36,634 nucleotides of DNA from IMG/VR virus record IMGVR_UViG_3300045927_000052, positions 1 through 36,634 of that record; one strand, 5' to 3'. The notes under the pieces are model-generated. The model saw only the letters and a list, made by a program, of their open reading frames with translations, did not search any database and had not been told where the DNA came from. Shown one piece after another: positions 5,687 to 36,634 of this stretch. How positions within the stretch are numbered: position 1 is the first letter of the stretch; every line of letters begins with the position of its first letter. This DNA comes from a virus. Position numbers and translations under genes: made by a program.

Positions 5687-7197
5687 GTGAACCTGCACTC
5701 GAACTTCGGGTCGTCGCCGCGCCCGTCGAGATGCCAGCTGCGCTTCAGGTTCTCCCCCGGTGCGTAGAGGCCGATGCGATGCGCGTGCCAGCCTTCGACC
5801 TGGGCGACCGAGTGCATCTTGTCCTCGATCATCGTGCGCCCCGATGTGGGGAAGTGGTCGTCGAGGATCCGCCGGTAGTAGCCGGCGGCAGCGAGGTGGG
5901 GGCGTTGCGACCATTGGGTTGTGCGCAGGATCGGCGCCCCAGCGAAGTCGATCGGTGTCTTGTCGACCATGAGCGGGCGGTGCGACCCGACGATCACCGC
6001 TTCGTGATGCAACCGGATCACGTCGAGCTGGTCGCCGACGGCGTCGAAGAGGGCGGGCCAGTCGATGAGCCAGTCGGTGACGAGCGGCGTGTCGTGCTCG
6101 ACGAACAGCACCGCCGGGGTGTCGACGTGACCGAGCGTGACGCGGGTCATGTTCGCCTGATGCTGGAAGTCGTCGAACACGATCGGGGTGACACCCTGCC
6201 ATCGCCATTGGCAGAGCCACAGCAGCCTGCGCAGATATGCCTCGTACCGGCCGCGGTGGTGTTCCTGCTCGGTGCGGACCCCGTCGCACATGATGATGAT
6301 GTCGGCGTCGGGGAGCCAGTGTCGGACGGAGGCGACGGTGGTCTCGATGATCGACGTGTCCGGATGGGTCGGGATCGGCGACGTCGGGATGAGCACCGTG
6401 ACGGGGCGCTGGTCGCTGCAGCCGACGTCGTCGAGGAGCTGGCGGCGGAGGGTGCGCTTGTGCAGCTGCCACCATGCGAAGCAGCGGTTCGCGTTGGCCG
6501 GCCATCGGTCGAGCTCGACGGCCAGGACGTCGGGCAGGTTGGCCCAGTCGTCGATGATCGGGAATGGCACCTGCCCGTACGTGAATGGCCAGTAGCCATC
6601 GACTCCGGCCGGGCATCGGCCGTCGGCGATCGGCACCACTCCGGCCTCGAGCGCCTCCCACACCCGGAACGTGTCCGGCGTCTTCGGCCCGGACGGGCAC
6701 GGCGCGGCCTTGACCGCCGCCAACGTGGCCAAGTAGCGGTCTCTGGCCGCGCCTTGGGTGAAGCCGGGCGTTTCGACGACGTTCGCCGGGTCGACGGCCC
6801 GCATCGCCGCGACGGCCTCTTGGCGGCGGCGGTGGTTGACCTGACCGGCGAACCACCAGTCCCCCGTCGGGTCGACGGGTCCGTCGCCCTGCAGCTGGCC
6901 GAGCAGCGCCCTGGTGTCGGCCGGCCAGCCGAGCGGCCAGAACCGGTCATGGCCGGCGTGGATGTCGGGTCGGGGGGTCTGGATCCACACGAGCGGAGCG
7001 CGCAGCTCGCGCCACGGGAAGATTGATTCCTCGTCCGACGTGAGGATCGCCACGTCCGCCGGGTCGACGTCGCCGGGGGTGTGGTAGCGGGCCGGGACGA
7101 CGACCGTCTGGCGGGGCGTCTCAGCCGGGAGCATCTCGTCGAGGAGGGCCTGGTCCCAGCAGAGCGGATGAGCGTCGAGCCAGCGGACCGGGATCAT
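5683..7197 (-). CDS. Bifunctional glycosyltransferase: exostosin-like plus GT-A domain
   Basis: A 504-aa protein from ATG 7197 (ATGA overlap). The N-terminal part, to about residue 255, has the exostosin/GT47-like signature FRVWEALEAGVVPIADG (177-193). The C-terminal part begins with a GT-A nucleotide-binding strand, VTVLIPTSPIPTHP (266-279), and has FVEHDTPLV (365-373) at the place of the metal-binding DxD motif. A Trp/His-rich acceptor region (ENLKRSWHLDG) is near the end. The domain calls come from motif recognition; donor and acceptor are unknown. With its neighbour it gives the cassette four separate transferase domains in two proteins. Confidence 0.75.
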   Translation of the reverse strand: MIPVRWLDAHPLCWDQALLDEMLPAETPRQTVVVPARYHTPGDVDPADVAILTSDEESIFPWRELRAPLVWIQTPRPDIHAGHDRFWPLGWPADTRALLGQLQGDGPVDPTGDWWFAGQVNHRRRQEAVAAMRAVDPANVVETPGFTQGAARDRYLATLAAVKAAPCPSGPKTPDTFRVWEALEAGVVPIADGRCPAGVDGYWPFTYGQVPFPIIDDWANLPDVLAVELDRWPANANRCFAWWQLHKRTLRRQLLDDVGCSDQRPVTVLIPTSPIPTHPDTSIIETTVASVRHWLPDADIIIMCDGVRTEQEHHRGRYEAYLRRLLWLCQWRWQGVTPIVFDDFQHQANMTRVTLGHVDTPAVLFVEHDTPLVTDWLIDWPALFDAVGDQLDVIRLHHEAVIVGSHRPLMVDKTPIDFAGAPILRTTQWSQRPHLAAAGYYRRILDDHFPTSGRTMIEDKMHSVAQVEGWHAHRIGLYAPGENLKRSWHLDGRGDDPKFECRFT

Positions 7198-7772
7198 CGC
7201 TTCACCGCGACGATCCAACGCCATTCGCTGTAGCAGTCGTTGAGGAGGTGGGTGATCGGTGCGAGCCGGGCGGCGTGACACCAGTCGAATACGACGTCAC
7301 GGTTGACCTGGTGCGACGTCGGGCCGTGCTCGTCACCTTCGACGTACTGGGCTACTAGCCGTGCACCGGGGACGAGACGCTGCCCGATCGACTTGATCGC
7401 CACCGCCCCTTCGCCGTGGGTGAGGTGTTGGAGCACGGTGACGGTGTAGGCGCCGACGAACCACACGTCCGGGATGACCGGATCCACCACAGCAGGAACT
7501 AGACGCTCGATGAACCTGGCCCGGATCGCGTCAGCGGGTTCCACGCCGCGAATGTCGAAGCCGGGCCGCAACCGCGCTACGGCGGCCGTGAGACGACCGG
7601 TACCGCACCCGAAGTCCAGCACCGGGCCTTCGCGCACCTCGAGCTTGTTGGTCACGATCTCGGCGACCCGGTCGACGTCGTATGGCGGGACCCCTGCCGT
7701 GTTGTCGTCGATGGCGTCACCTTCGAGACTGCGCCACCAATCGAGCCCGGTCAGCACGGCGAGAAGAGCCAA
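7194..7772 (-). CDS. Class I SAM-dependent methyltransferase
   Basis: A 192-aa protein with a clear SAM-binding motif I, VLDFGCGTGRL at residues 51-61, followed by the acidic-loop strand DIRGVEPADA (about 73-82) and a YTVTVLQHLTHGE motif matching post-motif II of small-molecule methyltransferases. The start could be ATG 7772 or GTG 7757; the latter gives the short overlap usual here. Lying among glycosyltransferases, it probably O-methylates a sugar or the glycan end rather than DNA. There is no DNA-methyltransferase catalytic motif (no NPPY and no PC-type motif). Confidence 0.82.
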   Translation of the reverse strand: MALLAVLTGLDWWRSLEGDAIDDNTAGVPPYDVDRVAEIVTNKLEVREGPVLDFGCGTGRLTAAVARLRPGFDIRGVEPADAIRARFIERLVPAVVDPVIPDVWFVGAYTVTVLQHLTHGEGAVAIKSIGQRLVPGARLVAQYVEGDEHGPTSHQVNRDVVFDWCHAARLAPITHLLNDCYSEWRWIVAVKR

Positions 7773-8458
7773 TGCTGCTCGTGGTCAGTGCCGAGATGCT
7801 CCCCGTCGTAGCCACGCTCCGCCATGTAGGCGAGCAGCTCTTCCGGGGTGGCGGCGTAGTCGCGGGCCATCAGATCCGGGTGAATCGACACCCACACCAG
7901 CGGGCGACGCATCCGCAGCACCATGTCTGCGCCGCGCAGCACGTCAAGCTCGGCACCTTCGACGTCGATCGTGATCGCGTCCGGCATCGCCGTCCGGGCC
8001 AGCCGATCGATGGTCGTCACCGGACATTCGGTCAGGTGCTTCGGTTCGTGCAGGTACGTGTATGACATGGCGCCCCATTCGCCGCCGATCGAACAGTCAG
8101 GCCACCCACCGACGTTGATCTCGGCTTCGCCGGCACCCCACTGGCCGGCGTGCCCGACCAGCGACCGGACGGTGGCGAGCGGCGCCGCCAGAGCGTTGTG
8201 CTCCCACGTGAGCCGGATGTTGCCCCACAGCGGCCCGGTCGGTTCGATCAGCACCATGTGCTCGGCGCCGACGAACGATGCGTAGATCGCGGAGATCCAG
8301 CCGTGCTCGGCGCCGACGTCGAACAGGGTCATCCCGTGCCGGAGATGGTGCTCCATCGACGCGAACCGTTCGACTTCCCAGCGGGAGATCGCATCCCAGT
8401 CGGCGATGCTGTCCGGCAGGATCAGCCGCCACCGGCCGTTCACGACGGCGGGTTTCAC
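7751..8458 (-). CDS. FkbM-family methyltransferase
   Basis: A 235-aa protein starting at GTG 8458 in a GTGA overlap. SAM motif I is MTLFDVGAEHGWISAIY (43-59), with MVLIEPTGPLWGNI as the second strand. The FkbM hallmark DAITIDVEGAELDVLRGA is at 160-177. FkbM enzymes O-methylate hydroxyls on sugars and polyketides. In a glycosyltransferase cassette the likely target is a sugar of the glycan being built, which would cap or mask it. Two different methyltransferases in one cassette suggest two methylated positions. Confidence 0.88.
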   Translation of the reverse strand: MKPAVVNGRWRLILPDSIADWDAISRWEVERFASMEHHLRHGMTLFDVGAEHGWISAIYASFVGAEHMVLIEPTGPLWGNIRLTWEHNALAAPLATVRSLVGHAGQWGAGEAEINVGGWPDCSIGGEWGAMSYTYLHEPKHLTECPVTTIDRLARTAMPDAITIDVEGAELDVLRGADMVLRMRRPLVWVSIHPDLMARDYAATPEELLAYMAERGYDGEHLGTDHEQHWLFSPC

Positions 8459-9423
8459 AGCATGCCCCGCTGCTCGAGGACGGCGACGAGCTGACGCATC
8501 CTCACCTCGTACGTGTGGCCGGCGAGCACATGGCGGCGGCCGAGCTCGGCGACCCGCTCTCGTGTGGAGTCGTAGCGGAGCGACCCGTCGATCAGGTCAC
8601 GCAGGCTCGACCAGTCACCGACGTGCCACGTCAGCAGATGCTGCCCGTCGCTGTAGAGGCGGCCGTCGGTGACACCTTCGACGTGCGGGTGGATGAGGAA
8701 CCCGCCACGTCCGAGCGTCTCCGGGATCCGATCACTTGCGTACCTGGTCTGGCCGCCGGCGAGACAGGAGTCGCCGACGAGCACCTTCACCGTCGCGTAC
8801 AGGTCGCGCAGCGCCTCGCCTCGAACAGCTGGCTGCCCCTTGGCTGGCCAGAACCGGCAGCGGGTGCCGTACGTCTCACGCAGCCACCGGACGAGCTGCC
8901 CGCGGTGGGGCCATTCGCGGTGATAGTGGCCCTGCCACGATCCGACGAACGCGACGTCGGAAGAGAAGTCCTCGCGGAACGTGCCGGGTTCGCACTCGGC
9001 CTCTGAGACGCCGGGCGGCATCCACACGTGCTCGATCCCGACTTCGGCCCATTGTGCGTTGTGTCCGCCGTCGGCCGTCGCCAGCAGATCGACGGTGAAG
9101 AACGGCGACTCGCGGATGCGATGCTCCCGATCCAATCCCCACCAGCGATCCAGATGGGTGCCGATGATCGGGACGCCGCGGTTTCGGATCTCTTTCAGGA
9201 AGCGGCGCTGGTCGTCGTAGGTGACGGGCGGCGCGTAGTCGTAGGTGGTTACCCACTGCACGAGCTGGACGTCGTCGGGGATCCGTTCGGCCATGTGTCG
9301 CCACGCCGACGGCGCCTCTTGGATGCGGGCCACGTCGTGGCCGTTGGCTTCCCAAGCGTTCGCCAGGTGTGTCTCGGTCGAATGGGGCACGGAGTGGTTG
9401 CCGATCAGGGCGACGTTCAACAT
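8455..9423 (-). CDS. CgeB-like GT-B glycosyltransferase
   Basis: A 322-aa protein, first gene of the cassette, with GGAG 7 nt before ATG 9423. It starts MLNVALIGNHSVPHSTE, a GT-B N-terminal strand and loop. SSDVAFVGSWQGHYHREW (154-171) and ASDRIPETLGRGGFLIHP (229-246) match the second Rossmann domain of CgeB-like and GT4 transferases, where the RxxE segment binds the nucleotide sugar. It is a good candidate for adding the first sugar onto a protein, since it leads the operon. The acceptor is not visible from sequence. Confidence 0.8.
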   Translation of the reverse strand: MLNVALIGNHSVPHSTETHLANAWEANGHDVARIQEAPSAWRHMAERIPDDVQLVQWVTTYDYAPPVTYDDQRRFLKEIRNRGVPIIGTHLDRWWGLDREHRIRESPFFTVDLLATADGGHNAQWAEVGIEHVWMPPGVSEAECEPGTFREDFSSDVAFVGSWQGHYHREWPHRGQLVRWLRETYGTRCRFWPAKGQPAVRGEALRDLYATVKVLVGDSCLAGGQTRYASDRIPETLGRGGFLIHPHVEGVTDGRLYSDGQHLLTWHVGDWSSLRDLIDGSLRYDSTRERVAELGRRHVLAGHTYEVRMRQLVAVLEQRGML

Positions 9424-24035: not shown

Positions 24036-24112
24036 GCGGTCTCCGGTTCGTCGAACAGCGACGGGGCAGACGCCTCATATTCGGCTAGGCGGAAGTCGGC
24101 ATATCCGGTCAC
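24032..24112 (-). CDS. 26-aa micro-gene in the overlap chain
   Basis: GTG 24112 forms GTGA with the stop of the upstream gene (24109-24111), and its own stop (24032-24034) forms GTGA with the next start (24035). The peptide is acidic (VTGYADFRLAEYEASAPSLF, then DEPETA). Without it there would be a 73-base hole in an otherwise gap-free chain. It is far too short for routine gene callers. The double 4-nt overlap is the main evidence; function is unknown. Confidence 0.5.
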   Translation of the reverse strand: MTGYADFRLAEYEASAPSLFDEPETA

Positions 24113-24294
24113 GGTTTCGCCTCGTCGGGGAGTGCGTCGACGGCGGCGCGCAGTTCCTTCGCTGGCCCGTACACCGCGGCGGCGACGACGGGTCGCCAGG
24201 CGTCGACGAGGGCGGCGAGCCGGTCCCGCTCGGCGAGGAGCGGGTGGCGGGTGAAGTCGATGTCGCCGAGTTCGTCGAAGGGGTTGTCGCTCAC
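24109..24294 (-). CDS. Small hypothetical protein, 61 aa
   Basis: GTG 24294 overlaps the RusA stop (GTGA), and its stop overlaps the 26-aa gene. The sequence VSDNPFDELGDIDFTRHPLL leads into a helical Ala-rich region (AERDRLAALVDAWRPVVAAA). Not recognised. It is probably a small acidic helical accessory protein of the replication/recombination block. Confidence 0.6.
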   Translation of the reverse strand: MSDNPFDELGDIDFTRHPLLAERDRLAALVDAWRPVVAAAVYGPAKELRAAVDALPDEAKP

Positions 24295-24722
24295 GCCGCC
24301 ACCCCCGTCCGGTCCGCTAGGTACAGCTTCGCTCCGGTCCACTCGTCGACCTCGGCGGCGTAGACGTGGATTTCGCAGACTTGGGCGTCGTTGCGGATCA
24401 ATCCGCCGTCGGCGAGCCCGTCCAACGTGGCGCGCAGCACCTTGTCTTTGTCGGGCATCACCACGTGCCAGCCGTGGTGGGATTTGGGGCGGGATTTGGG
24501 GCGGGGGAACCGGAAGTAGGCGACGAGGACGGTGGGTCCGTCGATGCGGCCGTGTCGTCCGGCGGCGGTGCGGGCGGCTTGGGAAACGGCGGTGCGCCAC
24601 GCCCGATGCTTGGCGCGGCCGGTGGCGGAGGCGCCTTCGATGACGGCGCCGTTCGGCATCCGGGTTTTGGAGCCTTGTGGGGCGGGGATGCCTTCAACGT
24701 CGAACGAGATGGGGTCAGGCAT
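24291..24722 (-). CDS. rusA: RusA-family Holliday junction resolvase
   Basis: A 143-aa protein from ATG 24722. It has the RusA layout: an N-terminal strand FDVEGIPAPQGSKTRMPNG, basic region HRAWRTAVSQAARTA, then PDKDKVLRATLDGL with the paired acidic residues (Asp91, Asp93, Asp101) and GGLIRNDAQVCEIHVY with Asp112. RusA cuts four-way junctions made during recombination and packaging. It works with the RecT/exonuclease pair three to four genes downstream. The size fits the family (about 120-145 aa). Confidence 0.92.
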   Translation of the reverse strand: MPDPISFDVEGIPAPQGSKTRMPNGAVIEGASATGRAKHRAWRTAVSQAARTAAGRHGRIDGPTVLVAYFRFPRPKSRPKSHHGWHVVMPDKDKVLRATLDGLADGGLIRNDAQVCEIHVYAAEVDEWTGAKLYLADRTGVAA

Positions 24723-25014: not shown

Positions 25015-25244
25015 GGCCGGGTCTCGACTTCCCGGTCATCGACGGCGAGCGCGTCCTCTGCGACGATGCGGGCTCCGGCGTCCGACGTTTCGCCGAAGAT
25101 CATCCGGAGCGCCTCGGTGAGCTGTGCGGTGTGTGCCCGTTCAGCGTCGAGCGCATCACACAGGTCGAGCCACCGTCGTCGCTCGGCGTAGGGCAAGGCT
25201 CCGACGTGGCCGCGGTAGGCGGCGGTGTCGATCGGGTCAGTCAT
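25011..25244 (-). CDS. Small helical protein, paralogue of the next gene upstream
   Basis: A 77-aa protein (MTDPIDTAAYRGHVGALPYA). Its middle LDAERAHTAQLTEALRMIFG and end DREVETRP match the neighbour at 25241-25513 (LNAERAHTTQLIAAVQ... DREVQRRP). The DNA around both stop codons is also similar (CGACTTCCCGGTCAT against GGACTTCCCGGTCAT). The genes therefore look like a tandem duplication that diverged in the middle. Function unknown; a short coiled coil is likely. Confidence 0.65.
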   Translation of the reverse strand: MTDPIDTAAYRGHVGALPYAERRRWLDLCDALDAERAHTAQLTEALRMIFGETSDAGARIVAEDALAVDDREVETRP

Positions 25245-25513
25245 GGTCTTCTCTGGACTTCCCGGTCATGGTCGGCGAGGGCAGGATGTCGACGCATCCC
25301 TGTCAGCAACGGTGAGACACCCCGTAGCGCTTCGGCGAGCTGGTCGGCGTCGACCCACGCAGCTTGCACCGCAGCGATGAGTTGTGTGGTGTGCGCCCGT
25401 TCGGCGTTGAGCTCGTCCCTTAGGCCGTCCGCCTCGCGACTCTTGTGGATCGCCCAGTTGCGGACTTCGTCGATCGTGAGGGCGGCGACTGTGGCGGAGT
25501 GCTTGTCAGCCAT
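25241..25513 (-). CDS. Small helical protein, paralogue of the gene downstream
   Basis: A 90-aa protein from ATG 25513, starting MADKHSATVAALTIDEVRNW, then a charged helix (SREADGLRDELNAERAHTTQ) shared with its neighbour, and ending DHDREVQRRP. It overlaps the LPxTG gene by 8 bases upstream and its paralogue by 4 downstream. Similar coiled-coil proteins of unknown role are common in actinophage early regions. Confidence 0.65.
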   Translation of the reverse strand: MADKHSATVAALTIDEVRNWAIHKSREADGLRDELNAERAHTTQLIAAVQAAWVDADQLAEALRGVSPLLTGMRRHPALADHDREVQRRP

Positions 25514-25991
25514 CGCTGCGCCTCCGTGCCGTCCACGCCGTGAACGTTCCGCCGGCGACGAGGATGAGTCCGGCGATGATGAGCTGCAGTTCGCTCCCGG
25601 TGGCCGGCAGGGTCCGGCTCGAGGCAATGCTGGTTGGCGCCCCCGGACCAGCTCTCGGTGTGCTGGTCTCAGGGGGCGCCGTCGTCACCGGTGCCGTCGA
25701 CTCCACCGTGGGGGTGGTGGTGGTCGGTTCCGCCGGTGGCGAACTCGTTGCGGGGGTGGGACACACTTCGGGGGTGTCGCCGGTGACGGTGAACCCGTCG
25801 CCCCATGTGGCGGTCCAGGTGCCGTCCCCGTTGTCGACCCAGCCGAAGCCGGGTTCCGATGTGAGGGCGGTGACGGTGTAGGTGTCGGTGCCTTCGACAC
25901 AGGACGGTTCGGCGTCGTGGGCCGAGGCGACGCCGGAGGTGGCGAGGAGTACGCCGGCGGTGACGGCAGCGGCGGTGACGATGCGGTTCAT
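25506..25991 (-). CDS. Secreted LPxTG cell-wall-anchored protein
   Basis: A 161-aa protein with all parts of a sortase substrate: signal peptide with hydrophobic core (residues 1-24, cut after ASA), a compact domain with two Cys (C31 and C77; TYTVTALTSEPGFGWVDNGD, TATWGDGFTVTG), a Thr/Pro/Ser stalk (about 80-125), LPATG (128-132), a hydrophobic helix (LIIAGLILVAGGTF) and an RRR-containing tail. It would be displayed on the host wall by a host sortase. In an early phage operon it could block superinfection, alter adsorption or serve lysogenic conversion. ATG 25991 makes ATGA with the upstream gene. Confidence 0.88.
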   Translation of the reverse strand: MNRIVTAAAVTAGVLLATSGVASAHDAEPSCVEGTDTYTVTALTSEPGFGWVDNGDGTWTATWGDGFTVTGDTPEVCPTPATSSPPAEPTTTTPTVESTAPVTTAPPETSTPRAGPGAPTSIASSRTLPATGSELQLIIAGLILVAGGTFTAWTARRRSDG

Positions 25992-26260
25992 GACTCGTCG
26001 TCGGAAGCGGAACGCGTGGCGAACGCGAGGGCGTCGAAGATGCGGACGACACGGTCGAAGTCATTGCCGCCGGCGCGGGTCCACGGCACCCAAACGGTGA
26101 TTGCCGACGAGTCGTCGTCGTCGGGTGTGACGTGCAGTTCGTCGGGCGAGGCGAGGTAGAGGCGGATGCCGTAGAAGGTTTCGCCGGGATGGTTGTCCGG
26201 ACGCTTGGTGACGACCTCAACGCGGTCGGTTAGTTCTTCGGCGTAGATGTTGATTCTCAC
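25988..26260 (-). CDS. Hypothetical protein, 90 aa (actinophage early gene)
   Basis: A GTG start at 26260, with AAAGGA 7 nt upstream. The sequence MRINIYAEELTDRVEVVTKR continues to FYGIRLYLASPDELHVTPDD, then AITVWVPWTRAGG. I recognise this as similar in style to a small conserved protein of actinophages with the same opening (MRINxYAEELTDRVE), function unknown. Beta-rich and acidic, it is followed by the LPxTG gene. Confidence 0.75.
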   Translation of the reverse strand: MRINIYAEELTDRVEVVTKRPDNHPGETFYGIRLYLASPDELHVTPDDDDSSAITVWVPWTRAGGNDFDRVVRIFDALAFATRSASDDES

Positions 26261-26488: not shown

Positions 26489-26643
26489 GTCGTCCTCCGG
26501 TCTCGTCGTTGCCATCCCCACCGCACCACCGCCGGGGCGGCCACCATGACGGCGAGGGCGGCGGCGACGATGACGGCCAGCCATCGCCACACGAACGCGG
26601 CGAGGGCGACGGCACCGATGTAGAAGATGAGAAACGGGGTCAC
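26485..26643 (-). CDS. 52-aa two-helix membrane protein
   Basis: GTG 26643 overlaps the methyltransferase stop (GTGA), and its stop overlaps the next ATG (ATGA), so it exactly fills the space between them. The peptide has two hydrophobic stretches (PFLIFYIGAVALAAFVW and LAVIVAAALAVMVAAPAVV) with a short turn containing one Arg (WRW), and a basic tail (RRDRRTT). Size and topology fit small holins or other phage membrane peptides, but its place in the early operon argues against a late lysis role. It might instead act in exclusion. Confidence 0.68.
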   Translation of the reverse strand: MTPFLIFYIGAVALAAFVWRWLAVIVAAALAVMVAAPAVVRWGWQRRDRRTT

Positions 26644-27881
26644 GCCACGGCCTCGAGGTGGGCGGCGAGCCGGGTGAGGATCGCGGCGGCGACGGGGGGG
26701 CAGACGGCGTTGCCGATCTGGCGGAACCGTGAGGTCTTGGTGCCGGTGACGGGGAAGTCGGGGGGGAAGCCTTGCAACACGAGGGCTTGTTCAACGGTGA
26801 GCTTGACGGAGCCGACGTGTTGCGATGGTCTGCCGTCGCCGTGGTGCTCAGGTCGGAACAGTTGACTGTCACCCATGACAACGGTGGCGGGCCGCTCCCA
26901 TGCCCACCCGCCAGCCTGTGTCGTGATCTGCGGCGCGGGCCTGGAGTCGGGGAACCGGTAGTAGTAATCGCTTCCGTCATCGGCTCGCGCCGGTTGCACG
27001 CCTTCGCTGTCGCGTGGTCGGTCGTGACGTGCCGAGTTGTGACGCAATGTCCATCCGTAGTTGCCGTTGTCGGCGGATGCGGTGATGGTCATGGCGGGCT
27101 GGTCCTGGTGTCGCCATGCCCCGTTGGCTTGCGTCTCCCGCAACACGAATCCGGGAGACGCGTGACCGCCGCCTTCACCGGTGCGAAGCGTGAACGCCGG
27201 CTCGTCGTCTCGGCGGGTCGGCCGTTCGCCGTACCGTTCGACCATGCCTGCTCCCCGTGGGCTGTACGCCTCGAACCCCGACCATCCCAACGCGTCGGCC
27301 ATCGACATCCACGGCAACAGACCCGTACCGAACAGTCCCGCATCGGTTGCTCGTGCCGGTTCGCCCGACACGTACCGTTGATGGGTCGGCTCTGGGGGGA
27401 CGGCGGGGCCGTTGAGGCGGGCGATCAGGTAGGCCCGCTGCCGGGTCTGCGGTACCCCGTACTGCTCGGCCGACAAGATGCCGCACCATGTTGAGTAGCC
27501 GAGCCGGTCGAGCTCTAGGGCGGTCATCCGCCAGATCGGTTCCACGTCGGGCACCTGCTCCAACGCGACCGCCCGCGGGCGGAGGGCCTCGATGAAGCGG
27601 AGCGGTTGCCAGACGAGGTGTCCGGTGGTGCCGTTGAGCCCGGCGCGTTTACCGGCGCGGGAGAAGTCGGTACAGGGAGGCGACCCGACGAGCACGTCTA
27701 CGGCACCGAACCGGGCCGGGTCGAGGGTGGCGATGTCGGCCCGGATGGTGGCGTGACCGGCGGTGTGGTGGGAGCGGCAGGCGTCTCGGTCCATGTCGAC
27801 ACCGATCACCGTCCAGCCGAGCTGGGCGAGGGCGAGCGACCAGCCGCCCATTCCGCAGAACAGGTCAAGCGCCGCGGTCAC
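26640..27881 (-). CDS. C5-cytosine DNA methyltransferase
   Basis: A 413-aa protein from GTG 27881. Conserved motifs in order: I LDLFCGMGGWSLAL (5-18), IV GSPPCTDFS with catalytic Cys70, VI ALEQVPDV (usual ENV is EQV here), VIII QTRQRAYLI, a long variable target-recognition region (about 180-340) and IX/X RFRQIGNAVCPPVA. No restriction enzyme gene is next to it, so it is probably a solitary phage methyltransferase that protects phage DNA from host restriction or mimics host methylation. The target site cannot be read from sequence. Confidence 0.93.
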   Translation of the reverse strand: MTAALDLFCGMGGWSLALAQLGWTVIGVDMDRDACRSHHTAGHATIRADIATLDPARFGAVDVLVGSPPCTDFSRAGKRAGLNGTTGHLVWQPLRFIEALRPRAVALEQVPDVEPIWRMTALELDRLGYSTWCGILSAEQYGVPQTRQRAYLIARLNGPAVPPEPTHQRYVSGEPARATDAGLFGTGLLPWMSMADALGWSGFEAYSPRGAGMVERYGERPTRRDDEPAFTLRTGEGGGHASPGFVLRETQANGAWRHQDQPAMTITASADNGNYGWTLRHNSARHDRPRDSEGVQPARADDGSDYYYRFPDSRPAPQITTQAGGWAWERPATVVMGDSQLFRPEHHGDGRPSQHVGSVKLTVEQALVLQGFPPDFPVTGTKTSRFRQIGNAVCPPVAAAILTRLAAHLEAVA

Positions 27882-28039
27882 GCCGATTCCTCGTGGGTGG
27901 CTCTCACCGTGGGTGGAGGGAGGGCGGTGGGGGCCATGACCGGATGCCCGTCACGGGCGGCTTGGGCGGCCGCTTCGGTCCAGATCGGAAGTGGAGTGAG
28001 GCGGGCGAGCTCGCCGTCGGTGAGGGTGAACAGGTGCAT
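27878..28039 (-). CDS. Small hypothetical protein, 53 aa
   Basis: ATG 28039 shares its A with the WhiB stop (TGATG); its stop overlaps the methyltransferase GTG. The sequence MHLFTLTDGELARLTPLPIW continues to TEAAAQAARDGHPVMAPTA and a Pro/Thr-rich end. Not recognised. Both overlaps support the short start over the long open frame. Confidence 0.62.
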   Translation of the reverse strand: MHLFTLTDGELARLTPLPIWTEAAAQAARDGHPVMAPTALPPPTVRATHEESA

Positions 28040-28443
28040 CACGCCACCGTCAACCGCTTCATGCGGAGCCGTCGCCGTTCCCGCGGCGTCAACCCACCCC
28101 ACATCCCGAACTTCTCGTCCATGCCGGCTTCGAGGCATTCGGCACGGACGACACATCCGCGGCACACGTCCTTCGCGTTCGCGGTTTCGCCGGGGGCGCA
28201 GCCTCCCCGTTCGGGGAAGAACAGGTCGACGCCCATGCCGAGACAGTTGGCTTCCGCCATCCACGGGGCGGGGGTGAAGGGGCCGGCGTCGGGGAGCTGC
28301 ACGGCGTCGCGGGTGACGGGCACGTACCGTTGGCGTTGCTTCTCGGCCCAGAGGGCGCGGCAGTCGGGGTGGCGGCAACCGCGGATGTAACGGCCGATCG
28401 ACGGCGGCCCATCATGCGTGTGAACGCCGGTGTCACTGTCCAC
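28039..28443 (-). CDS. WhiB-family iron-sulfur regulator with N-terminal Cys extension
   Basis: A 134-aa protein from GTG 28443. The C-terminal half is a WhiB domain: Cys67, then CRGC (94-97) and Cys103 in VVRAECLEAG give the four cluster ligands; GMWGGLTPRERRRLRMKR is the family GG-turn and basic DNA-binding tail. The first 45 residues add GRYIRGCRHPDCRALW (Cys23, Cys28), a small module also seen alone in actinophage proteins. Phage WhiB proteins such as that of TM4 can repress host whiB genes and alter septation or superinfection. An extra Cys82 is present. Confidence 0.92.
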   Translation of the reverse strand: MDSDTGVHTHDGPPSIGRYIRGCRHPDCRALWAEKQRQRYVPVTRDAVQLPDAGPFTPAPWMAEANCLGMGVDLFFPERGGCAPGETANAKDVCRGCVVRAECLEAGMDEKFGMWGGLTPRERRRLRMKRLTVA

Positions 28444-28702: not shown

Positions 28703-29046
28703 CACATCTCCTCGACGTCGTCGATTGAGCACCAGGAGGTGAGCGGCCCTTCATGCCATTGGATGCGGCGGGGCCGTTTCACGTACTGCGAGTCGAACGC
28801 GGCGACCTTGACGACCTTCGATGTCCTTTGGATGTCGACGTCAACGTGTCCGCCGCGGAGGGTGGAGACGACGGTGCCGGGGCGGATGATTGCGAAGTGG
28901 TCGAGGTGGACGTCGGCGGGCATGGGAGCCTCCGGGTAGAAGTCGACGTCGACGCCGTGGACGTGAACCCATTCGCCTTCGGCGGCGAGGTCGCAGGCCA
29001 GTTCGTAGGCGGCGTCACGAGTGGAGCAGTGAATGACGGTCATCAC
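28702..29046 (-). CDS. Hypothetical protein, 114 aa
   Basis: GTG 29046 (GTGA) or ATG 29043 (TGATG) start. A beta-rich sequence: MTVIHCSTRDAAYELACDLA, then GEWVHVHGVDVDFYPEAPMP and SKVVKVAAFDSQYVKRPRRI. Not recognised as a family. Its start is coupled to the 38-aa lipoprotein gene. Confidence 0.62.
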   Translation of the reverse strand: MMTVIHCSTRDAAYELACDLAAEGEWVHVHGVDVDFYPEAPMPADVHLDHFAIIRPGTVVSTLRGGHVDVDIQRTSKVVKVAAFDSQYVKRPRRIQWHEGPLTSWCSIDDVEEM

Positions 29047-29159
29047 GGCTCCAACGTGCAGGCGGTGCCGGTCCGATCACAGCTGAGCCGCCCGCCGCCG
29101 GCGGGGACACAGCCGAACGCGGCGGCGGCGAGGGCGAGGGTGACGATGAGGGCGCGCAT
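29043..29159 (-). CDS. 38-aa predicted lipoprotein
   Basis: ATG 29159 (TGATG with the excisionase stop). MRALIVTLALAAAAFGC is a short signal sequence ending in a lipobox-like AFGC (Cys17 would be lipidated), followed by a 21-residue mature peptide with two more Cys (SCDRTGTACTLEP) that could form a disulfide. It is the second gene transcribed after the Cro-like gene apart from the excisionase, so it should be made early. Small prophage lipoproteins in other systems block superinfection; that role is inferred only. Confidence 0.6.
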   Translation of the reverse strand: MRALIVTLALAAAAFGCVPAGGGRLSCDRTGTACTLEP

Positions 29160-29449
29160 CAGGCGGCTTCTCCTTGGGTGGGATCGCCATTGCGGGCCGG
29201 CAGGCGGGTGCAGTGGTCGATCCAGGCGTCGAGCGCGGATTGGCGGTAGGCGACGGATCGGGTGGAGGTGCGGATCCAGGTGGGGCCGACGCCTCGGTAT
29301 CGCCATTGGCGGAGGGTGGTGCGGGATTTGCCGAGGTAGGCGGCGGCGTCGGGTTCGTTCCGGATCGGGTCGAGCGGGGTACGCTTCGCGGCGTCGACTC
29401 GACCAGCGGGCGAGGCGGTGGCGGACCGGGCGGTAGAGGTCGCGCTCAT
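29159..29449 (-). CDS. xis: Excisionase-like helix-turn-helix protein
   Basis: A 96-aa protein from ATG 29449 (ATGA overlap). After a Ser/Thr-rich N-terminus it has a MerR-like winged helix typical of recombination directionality factors: NEPDAAAYLGKSRTTLRQWR (helix-turn-helix), YRGVGPTWIRTSTRSVAYRQ (wing) and a closing helix SALDAWIDHC. It lies beside the immunity region and opposite the integrase, the usual place for xis. A transcription regulator of the same fold cannot be ruled out. Confidence 0.8.
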   Translation of the reverse strand: MSATSTARSATASPAGRVDAAKRTPLDPIRNEPDAAAYLGKSRTTLRQWRYRGVGPTWIRTSTRSVAYRQSALDAWIDHCTRLPARNGDPTQGEAA

Positions 29450-29682
29450 GCGGCCACCTCGCCTTTGCGGGGGCGGGGGTCGAACAGCCACGACCATTCG
29501 ACCTTGAGTGCCTTTGCGAGACGAACCTGGTTGTCGGGGGTGGGGGCGGAGCGTCCGCTTTCCCAGGCGGAGACCATCTGTTGTGAGACTCCGACCGTGC
29601 CGGCGAGCGTCACCTGGTCGATGTCCAACGCCTCGCGTGCGGCTTTGATGCGCAGTCCCCAGCGGAGGCGGGTGATGCTCAT
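29446..29682 (-). CDS. Cro-like XRE helix-turn-helix repressor
   Basis: A 78-aa protein (ATG 29682; GTG 29688 also possible). The helix-turn-helix is TLAGTVGVSQQMVSAWESGR, followed by APTPDNQVRLAKALKVEWSW. It is divergent from the plus-strand repressor and first gene of the early operon. The promoter -10 ends 8 nt before the ATG with no ribosome site between, so the message is probably leaderless. It likely shuts down the repressor promoter during lytic growth. Confidence 0.82.
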   Translation of the reverse strand: MSITRLRWGLRIKAAREALDIDQVTLAGTVGVSQQMVSAWESGRSAPTPDNQVRLAKALKVEWSWLFDPRPRKGEVAA

Positions 29683-29719: not shown

Positions 29720-29764
29720 GTACTTGTGTCGAGAATGTACCGCTAGCGGGTCATGTACAAGCGT
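29701..29764. promoter_or_regulatory. Operator region between Cro-like and repressor genes
   Basis: Several short symmetric elements: CAAGTACTTG (29717-29726, perfect dyad over the early -35), CCGCTAGCGG (29740-29749, perfect dyad), TGTAC...GTACA (29736-29740 and 29755-29759), and a direct repeat TACAAGCGT (29704-29712 and 29756-29764). These are plausible sites for the two XRE proteins. I cannot pick out a clear rightward promoter. Confidence 0.6.
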
Positions 29765-29788
29765 CGGTTGTGTGGAAGGGTGGATGGC

Positions 29789-30217
29789 ATGGAGGGATTC
29801 GGGGCCATCATCAGGGACTGGCGCGGCGAACTCACGCAGACACAAGCCGCGAAGAAGATCGCCGAGGTCGCCGGGAAGACCGTGCTACAGCAGGACGTGT
29901 CCCGATGGGAGCGTGGCGGCGGAACCGATGACGTCGACGTGGTCGCGGCCGTAGCTGAGCTTGCCGGCGTCCCGGTCGATCAGGTTGAGGCGGCGGCTAG
30001 AACGACGGTGACGCTCGATCAGCTCGCCGCTGACCTTGCGGCGTTCCGTGCCCTGTTCCTCGAAAAAGAGAACGAGCGCATCGCCGTCGGGCGGCGGATG
30101 GCGGAGGTGATGGCAGAGGTGGCGATGACGTTGCATGTCGCGCTGCCAAACGGGTTCGTAGCTGAACCGCTGCCACCTCAACGGCGGCGAGCGCGATCAT
30201 CAACTCACCGTACGTAG
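29789..30217 (+). CDS. Immunity-type repressor (XRE family)
   Basis: A 142-aa protein from ATG 29789, with AAGGG 8 nt upstream (an in-frame ATG at 29753 lies in the operator region and lacks a site). The N-terminal helix-turn-helix domain reads FGAIIRDWRGELTQTQAAKK, then TVLQQDVSRWERGGG, and LAGVPVDQVEAAAR. The C-terminal half is a helical segment (LEKENERIAVGRRMAEVMAE) probably for dimerisation, with no LexA-type protease motif. It is divergent from the Cro-like gene and followed by the integrase on the same strand, which is the usual lysogeny arrangement. Confidence 0.82.
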   Translation: MEGFGAIIRDWRGELTQTQAAKKIAEVAGKTVLQQDVSRWERGGGTDDVDVVAAVAELAGVPVDQVEAAARTTVTLDQLAADLAAFRALFLEKENERIAVGRRMAEVMAEVAMTLHVALPNGFVAEPLPPQRRRARSSTHRT

Positions 30218-30324: not shown

Positions 30325-31398
30325 GTGGCGTCGATTGATCGCACCCCGTCGGGGAAGTGGCGGGCGAGGTGGCGGCCGACACCGGGCGGCCCCCAGAGGT
30401 CGAAGTCGTTCACTCGGAAGCTGGACGCGCAGCGGTTCCTGACCCGGATCCAGGCGGACATCGACGGCGGCCGGTACGTCGACCCACGGGCCGGCCAGGT
30501 CACGCTCGACGTGTTCTGGCGGCAGTGGTCGACGGTGCAGTCGTGGCGCAACGGCACCAGGGAGACGCAGACGGCGGTGTACGTGAACCGGATCGCCCCG
30601 ACGTTCGCTGACCGGCCGATGGCGTCGGTGCGCCGCTCCGACATCCAGGCGTGGCTGGCGACATTGACTCCTCGGCTGGCGACGTCGACGGTGGAGGGCA
30701 CGTTCCGGCTGTTGGCGGCCCTGTTCCGGGCAGCGCAACAGGACGGGATGATCGGCCGCTCCCCCTGCGAAGGGGTCCGCCTACCCCGCCGTGAGGGCAG
30801 GCTGTCGGAGCCGTTGACCGTGGCCGACGTCGAAGCCATTGCGGCGGCGATCCGCCCCGACCTCCGCGGTGCCGTCCTGTTCGCCGCCATGTCCGGGCTA
30901 CGCCAGGGCGAGCTGTTCGGGTTGACCGAGGATCGGGTGCGGTGGCTCAAGCGTGAGGTCGTGGTGGACCGGCAGCTCCTCACGTTGGTCGGTCAGGATC
31001 TCCGCCTCGGGCCGTGCAAGACGTCCCGGTCGGTGCGGGTCGTGCCGCTGGCCGATCGGGCCGTCGAGGTGTTGGCGGAGCACCTCGAGCGGCACCCGCC
31101 CGATCACGGTTGGGTGTTCCACCGGGACGGGCGACCGTGGGGGAGGTCGCCGGCGGCGGAGGCGATCCGCCAGGCGGGCGGCCGGTGGCACGACCTCAGA
31201 CGTCACGCCGCGTCGGTGTTGATCCGTGACGGCGCGTCGGTTACGGCGGTGGCGGCGGCGTTGGGGCATTCACCGGCGGAGTGTCTGCGGACGTATGCGG
31301 GGTGGTGGCCGGCGGAGGGTGACGTGGTGCGAGACGCGATGACGAAGGCATGGGGGGCGGCGCCCGTGTCCCGCCTGAGTCACGACACCCCCGGCTGA
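30325..31398 (+). CDS. int: Tyrosine-family integrase
   Basis: A 357-aa recombinase from GTG 30325. An N-terminal arm-binding region (residues 1-60, SIDRTPSGKWRARWRPTPGG) and SAM-like core-binding domain (about 65-150) precede the catalytic domain with Arg193 (SGLRQGEL), Lys232 (CKTSRS), His289-x-x-Arg292 (HDLRRH), His315 (LGHS) and Tyr324 (LRTYAGWWP). All catalytic residues are present. A TAGCCT hexamer 6 nt before the GTG suggests a leaderless start. It integrates phage DNA at a host attB; the attP is probably in adjacent non-coding DNA. Confidence 0.95.
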   Translation: MASIDRTPSGKWRARWRPTPGGPQRSKSFTRKLDAQRFLTRIQADIDGGRYVDPRAGQVTLDVFWRQWSTVQSWRNGTRETQTAVYVNRIAPTFADRPMASVRRSDIQAWLATLTPRLATSTVEGTFRLLAALFRAAQQDGMIGRSPCEGVRLPRREGRLSEPLTVADVEAIAAAIRPDLRGAVLFAAMSGLRQGELFGLTEDRVRWLKREVVVDRQLLTLVGQDLRLGPCKTSRSVRVVPLADRAVEVLAEHLERHPPDHGWVFHRDGRPWGRSPAAEAIRQAGGRWHDLRRHAASVLIRDGASVTAVAAALGHSPAECLRTYAGWWPAEGDVVRDAMTKAWGAAPVSRLSHDTPG

Positions 31399-32672: not shown

Positions 32673-33014
32673 TCACGCGAGGTCGGCGGTGATGACGATC
32701 AGGTCGTAGCCGTCGTTCGGGACGGTGAGCGTCACGCCGCCCCCGTAGGAGACCTCGAACTCCGAGTCGTACGCGCCTTCGGTGTCCGTGTCGTCAGCGG
32801 CCCACGCGTAGGACACGACGCCGGCCGCCGGTGTCACGATCGACGCTGCGGCGTCGATCTTCAGCTCGCCGGTGTCCCGGTTCCTCATCTTGAACAGGAC
32901 GGCGCTCGCCGTGGTCAGGTCGATGGCGGCCTCGTCGGTCTCGCCGACGTTCTGGCGGAGGGTCGCCTGGAGCACGGGCAGCCGGTCGTCGCGTTTGATC
33001 GTGAACGTCGCCAT
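32673..33014 (-). CDS. Small baseplate/fibre accessory protein (BppU N-terminal-like)
   Basis: A 113-aa all-beta protein: MATFTIKRDDRLPVLQATLR, then TASAVLFKMRNRDTGELKID and YDSEFEVSYGGGVTLTVPND. This order resembles the N-terminal domain of siphophage baseplate upper proteins, which attach receptor-binding proteins. The ATG at 33014 shares its A with the fibre stop (TGATG), so the two are coupled. A stand-alone domain of this kind after the fibre gene is common in actinophages. Confidence 0.65.
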   Translation of the reverse strand: MATFTIKRDDRLPVLQATLRQNVGETDEAAIDLTTASAVLFKMRNRDTGELKIDAAASIVTPAAGVVSYAWAADDTDTEGAYDSEFEVSYGGGVTLTVPNDGYDLIVITADLA

Positions 33015-36000
33015 CAGTCGAACTCCGTTGCCGTGGTGCCGGTTGTGGTGAACGTCGATGCCGTGGTCGCACGCGTCAGCCGGGAGCGGACCGGACTGCC
33101 GATGTCGGGGATGCCGGTCTGCCCGAAAGCGGCGGCGGTGAACGCGGCGAGGATCACGGCTGCGGTACCGGTGACGTTCGCGATGACTTGGCCGGTGGCG
33201 TTGCCGGTGAACGCTTCGAGTTCGATGGCTGCCGAGCCGGTGACTGGGGGGGCGACGATCCCGGTGGCGGTCGACGTGACGTCCGCGAGGGTGACGGCGG
33301 CGGTGCCGACGATGACGACGGCCCCGGCGGCGGTCGATGTCGCATCGGCGAGGGTGTCCGCGGCCGATCCGGTGATGAAGTCGCCGATGCCACCGGACGC
33401 GTTCGACGTGAAGTCGGCCAGCGTGACCGCGGCCGACCCCGTGATCGTCTCAGTGCCGGTCGCCGCCGAGGTCGCGTCGGCGAGAGTGACGGCGGCCGAC
33501 CCCGTGATCGTCTCAGTACCCGACGCCGAGCTCGTGAAGTCCGCGAGGGTCACCGCGGCGGTGCCGGTGATCACCACCGACCCAGACGCGGTCGACGTGA
33601 CGTCCGCCAGGGTCTGCGCTGACGTGCCGGTGATCGTCTCAGTGCCCGAGGCAGTCGAGGTGAAGTTGGCGAGGGTGACTGCGACGGTGCCGGTGATCTC
33701 CGGGGTGCCGGTGAACACCAAGAGCCAGTCGGGGTCGCCGGCGTCGTTGTTGCCCGGATAGGTCGGCTGGCCGGTCGTTGGGGCGGTGGTGTCGCCACTG
33801 GTCGGGTCGAACCAGTAGTGGGTGACCGTGCCGGTGAGCTCGCCGAGGTCGAACGTGTTGCCGGTGGCGGTGACGTAGGCGACGGCTAGCAGCCCATCCG
33901 CCGTGACGCCGGCCGTGGTGAAGTCGGTGGTGTCGGCGTCCTGCCCGTTGGCGGGCGGCGAGTCGACGTCCCCGAACGTCGGTTCGGTGTCGGCGTTGGT
34001 GGTGACGAACGCCGCGGCCGCGTCGGGGACGAGCCCCTCCCACCCGTCGAGGCTGGCGATGTGGGCGATGGTGCGGGCGACGTGAGCGAAGACGGCGTCG
34101 GCGATGTCAGTGTCGGCGTCGTCGGTCGCCAAGCTCAGGTCGTCGGAGGAGACGATCGACCCGCCGAGACCGCCCCAGCAGATCGAGCGGATCGCGTTCT
34201 TCCGGACCGCTTTGCGGGTCGTGGTCGAGATGCCGTCGACCGTGTGGAACCTTGACTGCCAGTAGTGGCTTTCGAGGAACATGACCGGGATGTTGTCGGT
34301 CTCCCACGCCCGGTTCGCTTCGATCTCGGTCGTGTAGTACGTGTACGTGCCGTTGATGTCCGGGTACTCGTAGGTGTAGCCGCCCCGGTCGGTGGTGCCG
34401 TCCCAAGCGGTGTTGTCCGTGGAGATCGACCGCAGGTACTGAAGCCAGAGGGTGACCGGTTGGGTGGCGCCGCCTTCACGGATGCCGCGCAAGAGCGACC
34501 CGTACTTCGAGTTGAGCGCCGACCATTGCTCGTCCTGCCAGTCGTTGCCGATCGACCACAGCAGGTTGGGTTCGTCGGCGAACCAGGCGCCGATGGCCTG
34601 GCCCAACGTTCGGCAGTCGGCGTCGGTCTCGGACCCGAAGTCGTTGGCCCACGAGATGTTGTCGACTGGGTTTAGCATCACGGTGATGCCGGCGAGCGCC
34701 GCCGCCCGGACGTGGGCCCGGATCGTGTCCACCCAGTAGTCAGGGTTGGGGTCGGTGATGTCGCCGCCGATGTACGGCAGGTTCCCATCCCAGTCGGAGC
34801 CGTCCTCGGGGGCGTTCATCGCTGCGCCCTTGGCGTTGCCGATGCACTGCCACAGGTTGACGCTCAGCGTCTCGGATGTGGAGAGCAGGGTCGACATGAC
34901 GGCGCCGCCCGGCTGGTAGTTCTGCCACATCTGGATCGAGATGCCGTTGCCGAGCCACGGGTTGGCGAACTGGTCTTCGAGGTAGCGGCCGGAGGCGGCG
35001 ACGGCGGTGGCGTAGGGGGCGAGCGTCTCGAACGCGTCGCATGTGAAGTCGGCGAGGGTGACCGCGGCGGAGCCGGTGATGATCAGCGTGCCGGACGCGG
35101 TCGAGGTGAACGCGGCGAGGGTCTGTGCCGAGGTGCCGGTGATGACCAGTTGGCCCGACGCCGAGCTCGTGAAGTCGGCCAACGTCACCGCGGCGGATCC
35201 GGTGATGACGTCTCCGACGGTGCCCGACGCCGAGCTCGTGAAGTCTTCGAGTGTGACGTCGACGGTGCCGGTGACCGGGTTCGCGACCGTGCCCGACGCC
35301 GAACTGGTGTAGTCGGCGAGGGTCTGTGCGGAAGTGCCGGTGAAGACCTCGGCACCTGAAGCCGACGACGTGAACGCTTCGAGCGTGACCGCAACCGTCC
35401 CGGTGATCCCCGGATCCGTGACCGTGCCCGAGGCGCTCGAGGTGGCGCCCGCCAACGTGACCGCGACGGTGCCGGTGATCGGCTGGCAGTCGAGGACGAG
35501 AATCGCTGCGCAGTGATCCCTCGCCGTGCCGAGCATCGTCGAGTGGTCGTAGGTCTGCGCCGACGGGGTGCCCGTATTCTGGACGTACTTGTACGTCGAG
35601 TTGAGCGTCGACCCGGACGTGGTCGTCCCCGACCCGCGGCGGGTCAGCGTCACCCAGGCACCGTCGGTCGTGTCGGTGTCCTGCGTGAAGCTGTCGGCGG
35701 TGCCACCCTCGACCGCGACGAGAGCGCACACCACTTGACCGTTCATGTCCGGGGTTGCAGCGACGGATACGGCCTGGCCGGTCTGGTTGTCCTGCCGGGC
35801 GTACGAGGAGGCGAGGACGGGGGTGGTCGTGTCGGCGCCGGCGAACTGCTGCGCGCAGATCGCCTTCGCGGTGGTCGAGTTGCCGTAGGTGATCGTGATC
35901 GTGTCGCCGGCGTCGAGCGACCGGGTCACGGGGCAGACAACGAAGAAACCCTGCTGCCCTGCGGAGGCGGCGCCGGGGTCGGCGATCGCCTGCGGGGTTT

Positions 36001-36634
36001 GCAGCGTATAGGTGTTGGCGGTGCCCGCGTTGTTCGAGTTGTCGGCGACGGAGATGGTGGTGGCTGCGCCGGCGGAGCCGGTGTTGTCGCAGGCGCCGTA
36101 GATGACGATCGTGTCGCCGATCGGCACCCCACCGGAGGCGACGGTGATGTCGGAGGTACCGGCGCCGGTGGTGTTCGTGACGAACCCGACCTCTTTCACG
36201 TAGAGGACGGCCGGCGGGTTCATCACCGACCCGCTGGCCGAGCTCGTGCAGGCGGCGAGGGTCACCGCGGCGGAGCCGGTCACACCGGACGACGAGTCGT
36301 CGTAGAACGACAGGAAGATTTCGCGGGCGTCGTCGACCGTGTCCGAGTTGGATGCCGCGACCGCGGGGGTGCCGGACTCGTTCAGCTTGTAGCTGGCGTG
36401 CGAAACGGTGTTGTTCGCCCCGTCGGTTTCTTCGTAGATGTCGGTGTACCCGGTCGGGTTCGTGAACGCGTTCGTGCCGCCGGTCGAAAGCACGACACCG
36501 TAGAGGCCGATCGCTCCGGCTTGCAGCGCGGCGGCGGCGGTCACCGAGAACGGGCTGGTGGTGTCGTTCGCGGTGGCGGCCGACGCCGAGTCGTACGAGA
36601 TGTTCCCGTCGGACGTGATCTCGATGATGTGAAG
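33014..36634 (-). CDS. Tail fibre/spike with glycoside-hydrolase-like domain, N-terminus cut by window edge
   Basis: The frame is open to the right edge (in-frame codons run past 36544), so this is at least the last 1206 residues. Order: a beta-sandwich region (36300-35500; strands such as DTIVIYGACDN and DTITITYGNS), a block of short Thr/Ser/Ala repeats (about 35490-35040), a globular domain (about 35025-34040), a linker domain, and a second repeat block (about 33700-33080). The globular part has GRYLEDQFANPWLGNGISIQ, WFADEPNLLWSIGNDW and VMFLESHYW, resembling DUF4038/apiosidase-like glycoside hydrolases. It probably binds and cuts a host surface glycan during adsorption. Confidence 0.82.
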   Translation of the reverse strand, partial: LHIIEITSDGNISYDSASAATANDTTSPFSVTAAAALQAGAIGLYGVVLSTGGTNAFTNPTGYTDIYEETDGANNTVSHASYKLNESGTPAVAASNSDTVDDAREIFLSFYDDSSSGVTGSAAVTLAACTSSASGSVMNPPAVLYVKEVGFVTNTTGAGTSDITVASGGVPIGDTIVIYGACDNTGSAGAATTISVADNSNNAGTANTYTLQTPQAIADPGAASAGQQGFFVVCPVTRSLDAGDTITITYGNSTTAKAICAQQFAGADTTTPVLASSYARQDNQTGQAVSVAATPDMNGQVVCALVAVEGGTADSFTQDTDTTDGAWVTLTRRGSGTTTSGSTLNSTYKYVQNTGTPSAQTYDHSTMLGTARDHCAAILVLDCQPITGTVAVTLAGATSSASGTVTDPGITGTVAVTLEAFTSSASGAEVFTGTSAQTLADYTSSASGTVANPVTGTVDVTLEDFTSSASGTVGDVITGSAAVTLADFTSSASGQLVITGTSAQTLAAFTSTASGTLIITGSAAVTLADFTCDAFETLAPYATAVAASGRYLEDQFANPWLGNGISIQMWQNYQPGGAVMSTLLSTSETLSVNLWQCIGNAKGAAMNAPEDGSDWDGNLPYIGGDITDPNPDYWVDTIRAHVRAAALAGITVMLNPVDNISWANDFGSETDADCRTLGQAIGAWFADEPNLLWSIGNDWQDEQWSALNSKYGSLLRGIREGGATQPVTLWLQYLRSISTDNTAWDGTTDRGGYTYEYPDINGTYTYYTTEIEANRAWETDNIPVMFLESHYWQSRFHTVDGISTTTRKAVRKNAIRSICWGGLGGSIVSSDDLSLATDDADTDIADAVFAHVARTIAHIASLDGWEGLVPDAAAAFVTTNADTEPTFGDVDSPPANGQDADTTDFTTAGVTADGLLAVAYVTATGNTFDLGELTGTVTHYWFDPTSGDTTAPTTGQPTYPGNNDAGDPDWLLVFTGTPEITGTVAVTLANFTSTASGTETITGTSAQTLADVTSTASGSVVITGTAAVTLADFTSSASGTETITGSAAVTLADATSAATGTETITGSAAVTLADFTSNASGGIGDFITGSAADTLADATSTAAGAVVIVGTAAVTLADVTSTATGIVAPPVTGSAAIELEAFTGNATGQVIANVTGTAAVILAAFTAAAFGQTGIPDIGSPVRSRLTRATTASTFTTTGTTATEFD
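33080..33700 (-). repeat. C-terminal block of about nine coding beta-repeats
   Basis: Tandem units of about 20-24 residues with the pattern ITGTAAVTLADFTSSASGT. Variants include ITGTSAQTLAD and VTGSAAIELEAFTGNATG, so units have diverged but length is kept. They encode regular beta-strand linkers in the fibre. The codons also create a long, meaningless plus-strand frame here. Confidence 0.85.
35040..35490 (-). repeat. N-terminal block of about seven coding beta-repeats
   Basis: Seven further units of the same family (for example ITGTVAVTLAGATSSASGT and VTGTVDVTLEDFTSSASG) lie just ahead of the hydrolase-like domain; the last is degenerate (LADFTCDAFETLAPY). A single isolated unit lies near 36240. 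The pattern places the enzyme domain between two flexible or rod-like arms. Confidence 0.85.

What the first reader, a model, noticed from the sequence alone, without database searches (positions are those of the whole stretch)
25506..25991. Early-operon LPxTG protein displayed on the host wall
Signal peptide, small domain, Thr/Pro stalk, LPATG, membrane helix and RRR tail are all intact. A phage gene making a sortase-anchored surface protein right after repressor release suggests superinfection exclusion or masking of the receptor, or a surface trait if also expressed in the lysogen.
Basis: partly seen in the sequence, partly recalled or inferred. Interest (0 to 1): 0.7.

Follow-up and report, generated by a model that had tools for sequence, protein, structure and literature searches.

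The report
Phage-made protein for host cell wall
An actinobacterial virus carries, among the genes it probably switches on first during infection, a small protein built to be pinned to its host's cell wall; it may shut out competing viruses, but that is not shown.

Summary
The gene lies on the MINUS strand (25991 to 25506, 161 aa). Its protein has a signal peptide, a 55-residue two-cysteine domain, a Thr/Pro/Ser stalk, LPATG, a membrane helix and an RRR tail. A strict architecture search finds it once in the window and never in 200 shuffles. An ortholog with the same architecture sits in a second, otherwise mostly unrelated phage. Its domain is 80% identical and only this reading frame shows clear constraint. 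In both phages the gene is locked by 4-8 base start/stop overlaps into a same-strand chain that runs from a Cro-like repressor gene to recombination genes. That is an early lytic operon by anatomy; no transcript was seen. It is the twelfth gene of the chain, not the first. Phage-encoded LPXTG proteins are already known: SasX of a staphylococcal prophage, a group B streptococcal prophage protein, and one annotated in P35-like Listeria phages, which are obligately lytic. My best explanation is a wall-anchored surface protein made early in the lytic cycle that blocks adsorption of later or progeny phage (0.45). Lysogenic conversion is less likely because of the operon position. Function, host and sortase use are untested. 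New protein family, new variant of a known kind.

The parts
25506..25991 (-). LPATG wall-anchor candidate, 161 aa: signal peptide 1-24, domain 25-80, stalk 78-127, LPATG 128-132, helix, RRR tail
25752..25919 (-). Codons 25-80: two-cysteine all-beta domain, 80% identical in the second phage; AlphaFold2 pLDDT 86 from two sequences
25988..26260 (-). Upstream neighbour, phrog_20753 family, unknown function; its stop overlaps the start of the LPATG gene by 4 bases
25241..25513 (-). Downstream neighbour, starts 8 bases inside the LPATG gene
24291..24722 (-). RusA-type Holliday junction resolvase, further down the same chain
24109..24294 (-). Small gene with a homolog two genes after the LPXTG gene of the second phage
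26640..27881 (-). C5 cytosine DNA methylase in the same chain
28039..28443 (-). WhiB-type regulator in the same chain (points to an actinobacterial host)
29043..29159 (-). 38-residue lipoprotein-like peptide, second surface candidate of the chain, with a counterpart in the second phage
29159..29449 (-). HTH_17 / excisionase-like gene, second of the chain
29446..29682 (-). Cro-like HTH gene, first of the chain
29753..30217 (+). Divergent HTH gene, probable repressor (weak match)
30325..31398 (+). Tyrosine integrase: the phage is temperate
33704..35014 (-). GH5-like part of a large tail-fibre-like protein (33014-36544), 85% identical in the second phage; candidate receptor-binding part

Best explanation
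A temperate actinobacterial siphophage makes, early in the lytic cycle, a secreted protein that the host's own sortase links to the cell wall. The small beta domain is held out on a Thr/Pro/Ser stalk and there binds or covers what related phages (and the phage's own progeny) adsorb to, so infected cells and their fragments stop taking up phage. Shown: anatomy, conservation, operon position. Inferred: early expression, sortase anchoring (the record has no sortase, so the host must supply it), and adsorption blocking.
For: Complete sorting architecture, not by chance, conserved in a second phage with only that frame constrained. Embedded in the lytic chain by overlaps in both phages, with no promoter-like or same-strand terminator-like site next to it. 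The two phages share few genes but share this one and an 85% identical tail-fibre/glycosidase-like domain, as expected if surface protein and adsorption apparatus concern the same host surface. A lytic-only precedent: P35 gp23 has the same layout in a phage described as lytic (passages), where lysogenic conversion cannot be its role. Many phages make exclusion proteins early, also to avoid adsorption to infected cells and debris (abstract and passages of PMC9586334).
Against: No homology to an exclusion or defence family. No fold match: best PDB E 0.8, best BFVD E 0.19. No expression, localisation or adsorption data. Host unknown. Only two members exist in what was searched, so the link with the tail domain is n = 2 and may only reflect a shared host. 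The known Gram-positive exclusion lipoprotein Ltp lies in the lysogeny module, not the early operon (passages of PMC3952083).
Confidence: 0.45

Rival explanations
1. Lysogenic conversion: the protein is displayed by lysogens and gives the bacterium an adhesive or protective surface trait, as SasX does.
For: Documented phage LPXTG proteins with a proposed or shown role are of this kind: SasX on a phiSPbeta-like prophage (passages of PMC10232760), the LPXTG gene of phiD12-like GBS prophages (passages of PMC6546898). The window phage has an integrase. Weak fold resemblance to Rib-type surface-protein domains.
Against: The gene lies inside the chain headed by the Cro-like gene, coupled on both sides in both phages; conversion genes typically have their own promoter and terminator (recalled). 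None seen, though the promoter scan is weak for such hosts.
Confidence: 0.25
2. The protein acts on the host envelope during infection without excluding phage: it strengthens or remodels the wall, occupies sortase, or shields the cell during the latent period.
For: Early position and surface design fit; a second small lipoprotein-like gene in both chains could belong to an envelope set.
Against: No enzymatic or known binding domain found.
Confidence: 0.2
3. It is secreted and membrane-held, not wall-anchored, because the host sortase does not use LPATG.
For: Host not identified; whole-protein TIGR01167 score below cut-off.
Against: Ortholog far above the cut-off; intact motif, helix and charged tail in both.
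Confidence: 0.1

Closest known systems
SasX (phiSPbeta-like prophage, Staphylococcus aureus ST239)
   Same: Prophage-encoded cell-wall-anchored surface protein (passages of PMC10232760)
   Different: Known as a colonisation and virulence factor of the lysogen; its sequence was not compared here; the window gene is in a lytic-type operon of an actinobacterial phage
gp23 of Listeria phage P35 / LP083-1_023
   Same: Signal peptide, short N-terminal segment, long repetitive stalk, LPPTG, helix, basic tail; start and stop overlap neighbours
   Different: No convincing sequence homology (best BLASTP E 0.002, low-complexity stalk); lytic Firmicute phage; function unknown; TIGR01167 14.6 bits, under the cut-off
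Ltp superinfection-exclusion lipoprotein of phage TP-J34
   Same: Phage-made protein outside the host membrane that excludes phage (abstract and passages of PMC3952083)
   Different: Lipid-anchored, lysogeny module, transcribed in the prophage state
Llp of phage T5
   Same: Small surface-directed phage protein made early that blocks re-adsorption (passages of PMC9586334)
   Different: Gram-negative outer-membrane lipoprotein acting on a known receptor; sequence not compared here

Membership tests
LPXTG sortase substrates (TIGR01167) | LPXTG motif, hydrophobic helix, basic tail at the C-terminus | tested here: met
LPXTG sortase substrates (TIGR01167) | Score over NCBI's cut-off of 15.9 bits | tested here: inconclusive
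   P0002 whole 13.7; six-frame 16.9; last 35 residues 17.4; ortholog 25.8-29.3
LPXTG sortase substrates (TIGR01167) | Cleaved and wall-linked by a sortase | not testable with these tools
   No sortase in the record; host unknown
Phage superinfection-exclusion proteins | Sequence membership in a known exclusion or defence family | tested here: inconclusive
   No match in Pfam, PHROGs or PADLOC; such proteins are diverse, so absence decides little
Phage superinfection-exclusion proteins | Reduces adsorption or injection of a second phage | not testable with these tools
   bench test needed
Lysogenic-conversion (moron) genes | Autonomous unit with its own promoter and terminator | tested here: inconclusive
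   Start/stop overlaps on both sides in both phages speak against it; promoter scan weak for this host type
Rib / Ig-like surface domains | Same fold | tested here: inconclusive
   Rib domains top the list but with Z 3.9 at most, rmsd 3.4, 55 aligned; Foldseek's best PDB match has E 0.8

The most novel reading that the evidence does not exclude
A cell-wall-anchored (sortase-dependent) superinfection or adsorption exclusion protein deployed early in the lytic cycle of actinobacterial temperate phages: a phage borrows the host's sortase to re-coat the wall, with P35 gp23 of lytic Listeria phages as an independently evolved counterpart.
Probability: 0.3. Interest if true: 0.72.

Novelty: new variant of a known kind. 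Interest (0 to 1): 0.47.

Why it matters
The phage exclusion proteins I read about are lipid-anchored (Ltp, Llp). A wall-anchored one made in the lytic programme would show that phages use the host's sortase pathway against competitors, and would explain why obligately lytic P35-like Listeria phages also carry an LPXTG gene. The gene is small and separable, so the idea is directly testable by expressing it and measuring adsorption.

Tried and rejected
Chance ORF or antisense artefact: rejected by shuffles and by the six-frame substitution test, although the crude gene caller favoured the antisense ORF.

L002, a second tblastn hit, matches only a 28-residue DNGDGTWTAT-like stretch inside a structural-type protein; dropped as a chance or repeat match. 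The weak A1 match in G012 (E 0.018, one stop inside) was dropped too.

Relatives elsewhere: none in 50,697 phage records with P0002; with P0003 only weak anchor matches in Listeria phages. Only the one relative in IMG/VR. None in GTDB species genomes with the patterns tried; these pattern scans reach close relatives only.

Host: a terminase scan of genome contigs found no relative, so the host stays unknown beyond 'actinobacterial' (WhiB; terminase kin).

Upstream neighbour phrog_20753: its two relatives' records (L019, L020) have no match to the A1 profile or TIGR01167.

Fold of the domain: no confident PDB or BFVD match. VIA-align rows are all under Z 4. The full-length model is mostly low confidence. 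The five domain models scored 86, 82, 62, 55 and 53 pLDDT, so the fold itself is not secure.

The overlap script picked out-of-frame ORFs at 28415 and 28102; I replaced them by WhiB 28443-28039 and the 53-aa gene that follows, from the ORF list and sequence.

Base rate: TIGR01167 over cut-off in 0 of 18 other IMG/VR records carrying a related terminase or neighbour (many are fragments) and in 0 of 17 actinobacterial phage or phage-plasmid records chosen by terminase similarity. One of those 17 had a sub-cut-off match (12.4 bits) inside a 1615-residue frame and lacking the motif columns.

Literature: seven word searches on LPXTG with phage terms showed no report, in the titles and abstracts listed or passages read, of an LPXTG protein used for phage exclusion; the library lacks most subscription papers.

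Full report
What is there. The finding's coordinates hold a 161-codon ORF on the minus strand. The protein reads as a textbook sortase substrate: signal peptide ending in ASA, a short domain with cysteines at 31 and 77, a stalk in which 33 of 50 residues are Thr, Pro or Ser (hand count), LPATG at 128-132, a hydrophobic stretch and RRRSDG. An explicit architecture scan gives 1 ORF in the window, 1 in the relative's 45.8-kb record, and 0 in 200 dinucleotide shuffles. TIGR01167 is borderline for this protein (13.7 whole, 16.9 six-frame, 17.4 tail alone against 15.9) and clear for the ortholog (25.8-29.3). Two results ran against the gene: the whole-protein score, and my crude GC-based caller, which chose an antisense ORF in both phages. 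The substitution test settles the second: omega is 0.59 in the claimed frame and 0.87, 1.49, 1.0, 0.86 and 1.12 in the other five.

Relatives. One true relative was found: a 180-aa protein in IMGVR_UViG_3300049733_000161, again with signal peptide, stalk, LPATG and RRR tail. The two are 66% identical over the aligned columns; the best tblastn segment shows 54% and the domain 80%. By segment, dN/dS is 0.155/0.379 in the domain, 0.233/0.442 in the stalk, 0.556/0.824 in the sorting part and 0.317/0.276 in the signal peptide, so the domain is the most constrained part. No relative appeared among 50,697 phage records or in the genome collection with the patterns used.

Place in the phage. The minus-strand genes form a chain from the Cro-like HTH gene at 29682 through an HTH_17 gene, a 38-residue lipoprotein-like peptide, WhiB, a C5 DNA methylase, a one-helix protein and phrog_20753 to the LPATG gene, then on to RusA, a PD-(D/E)XK-like nuclease and a RecT-like gene. 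Nearly every junction is an overlap; the only gap between the Cro-like gene and the LPATG gene is 12 bases, before phrog_20753. The LPATG gene overlaps its upstream neighbour by 4 bases and its downstream neighbour by 8. In the relative the LPXTG gene overlaps both neighbours by 4 bases and is followed by a Holliday junction resolvase (phrog_1770) and a homolog of the window's 24294-24109 gene. So in two phages it is an integral gene of the putative early operon. It is the twelfth gene, so 'right after repressor release' overstates it. A repressor-like gene and an integrase face the other way, so the phage is temperate by gene content. A near-identical contig (IMGVR_UViG_3300045944_000072) runs from window 16177 to 1, then through about 6.3 kb absent from the window, then from 36634 to 29567; the loci I held cover this except window positions 4017 to 2083. 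The phage map therefore closes to a circle of about 43 kb, and the integrase side is continuous with late genes, as in excised or virion DNA and not an integrated prophage.

Mosaic partner. Between the two phages the ORF comparison finds only a few shared genes: the LPXTG gene, the small downstream gene, WhiB, and a 437-residue part of the tail-fibre-like protein at 85% identity with a weak GH5 match. Terminase, portal and capsid gave no match at E 1e-4. That the surface protein and the likely adsorption module are both shared fits an action at the host surface, but with two phages it may only reflect a shared host.

How it probably works. Made early after infection or induction, exported, linked to peptidoglycan by the host's sortase (the record has none), the domain sits above the wall on a mucin-like stalk and masks or binds what phages adsorb to. 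Anatomy and position are shown; the rest is inference. The literature supports the logic: early exclusion proteins that also prevent wasteful adsorption to infected cells and debris are known (PMC9586334, abstract and passages). The strongest outside hint is Listeria phage P35. Its gp23 has a signal peptide, long repetitive stalk and LPPTG anchor, in a phage that two papers call virulent or lytic (PMC3989731, PMC8070769, passages). There a role in the lysogen is impossible. The two proteins are not convincingly homologous, so the likeness is one of design.

Rivals. Lysogenic conversion is the role of SasX (PMC10232760, passages) and is proposed for a GBS prophage LPXTG protein (PMC6546898, passages). 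The coupled early-operon position speaks against it but lacks transcript proof. A general envelope role in the latent period, or failure to be sorted in the real host, remain open.

Known or new. Phage-encoded LPXTG proteins are known. This one belongs to no Pfam, PHROG or PADLOC family, lies in the early operon of actinobacterial phages, and was the only such case besides its ortholog: 0 of 17 actinobacterial phage or phage-plasmid records over cut-off and 0 of 18 other IMG/VR records, many fragmentary. I rate it a new variant of a known kind.

Noticed in passing
window 29043-29159 (-); L026 15231-15344 (+): Tiny lipoprotein-like peptides (38 and 37 aa, lipobox-like Cys, shared ACTLE motif) in both early chains; 43% identical over a very short length. 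A second surface candidate in the same chain as the LPXTG gene.
   Followed up: partly
window 5683-9423 (-): Block of glycosyltransferase-like, FkbM methyltransferase and methyltransferase genes inside the head/tail region; the second phage seems to have a glycan-type block there too, judged by eye. Possibly virion glycosylation, or modification of the Thr-rich stalk.
   Followed up: partly
window 1 and 36634: A near-identical contig bridges the window's two ends through about 6.3 kb missing from the window: the phage map is circular, about 43 kb.
   Followed up: yes
window 33014-36544 (-): 1176-aa tail-fibre-like protein with many short repeats around a GH5-like centre.
   Followed up: partly
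L032 4380-5153 (Listeria phage P35): gp23, unnamed in its RefSeq record, is an LPPTG-type wall-anchor protein in a phage described as obligately lytic; its close relative in LP-083-1 is annotated as such.
   Followed up: partly
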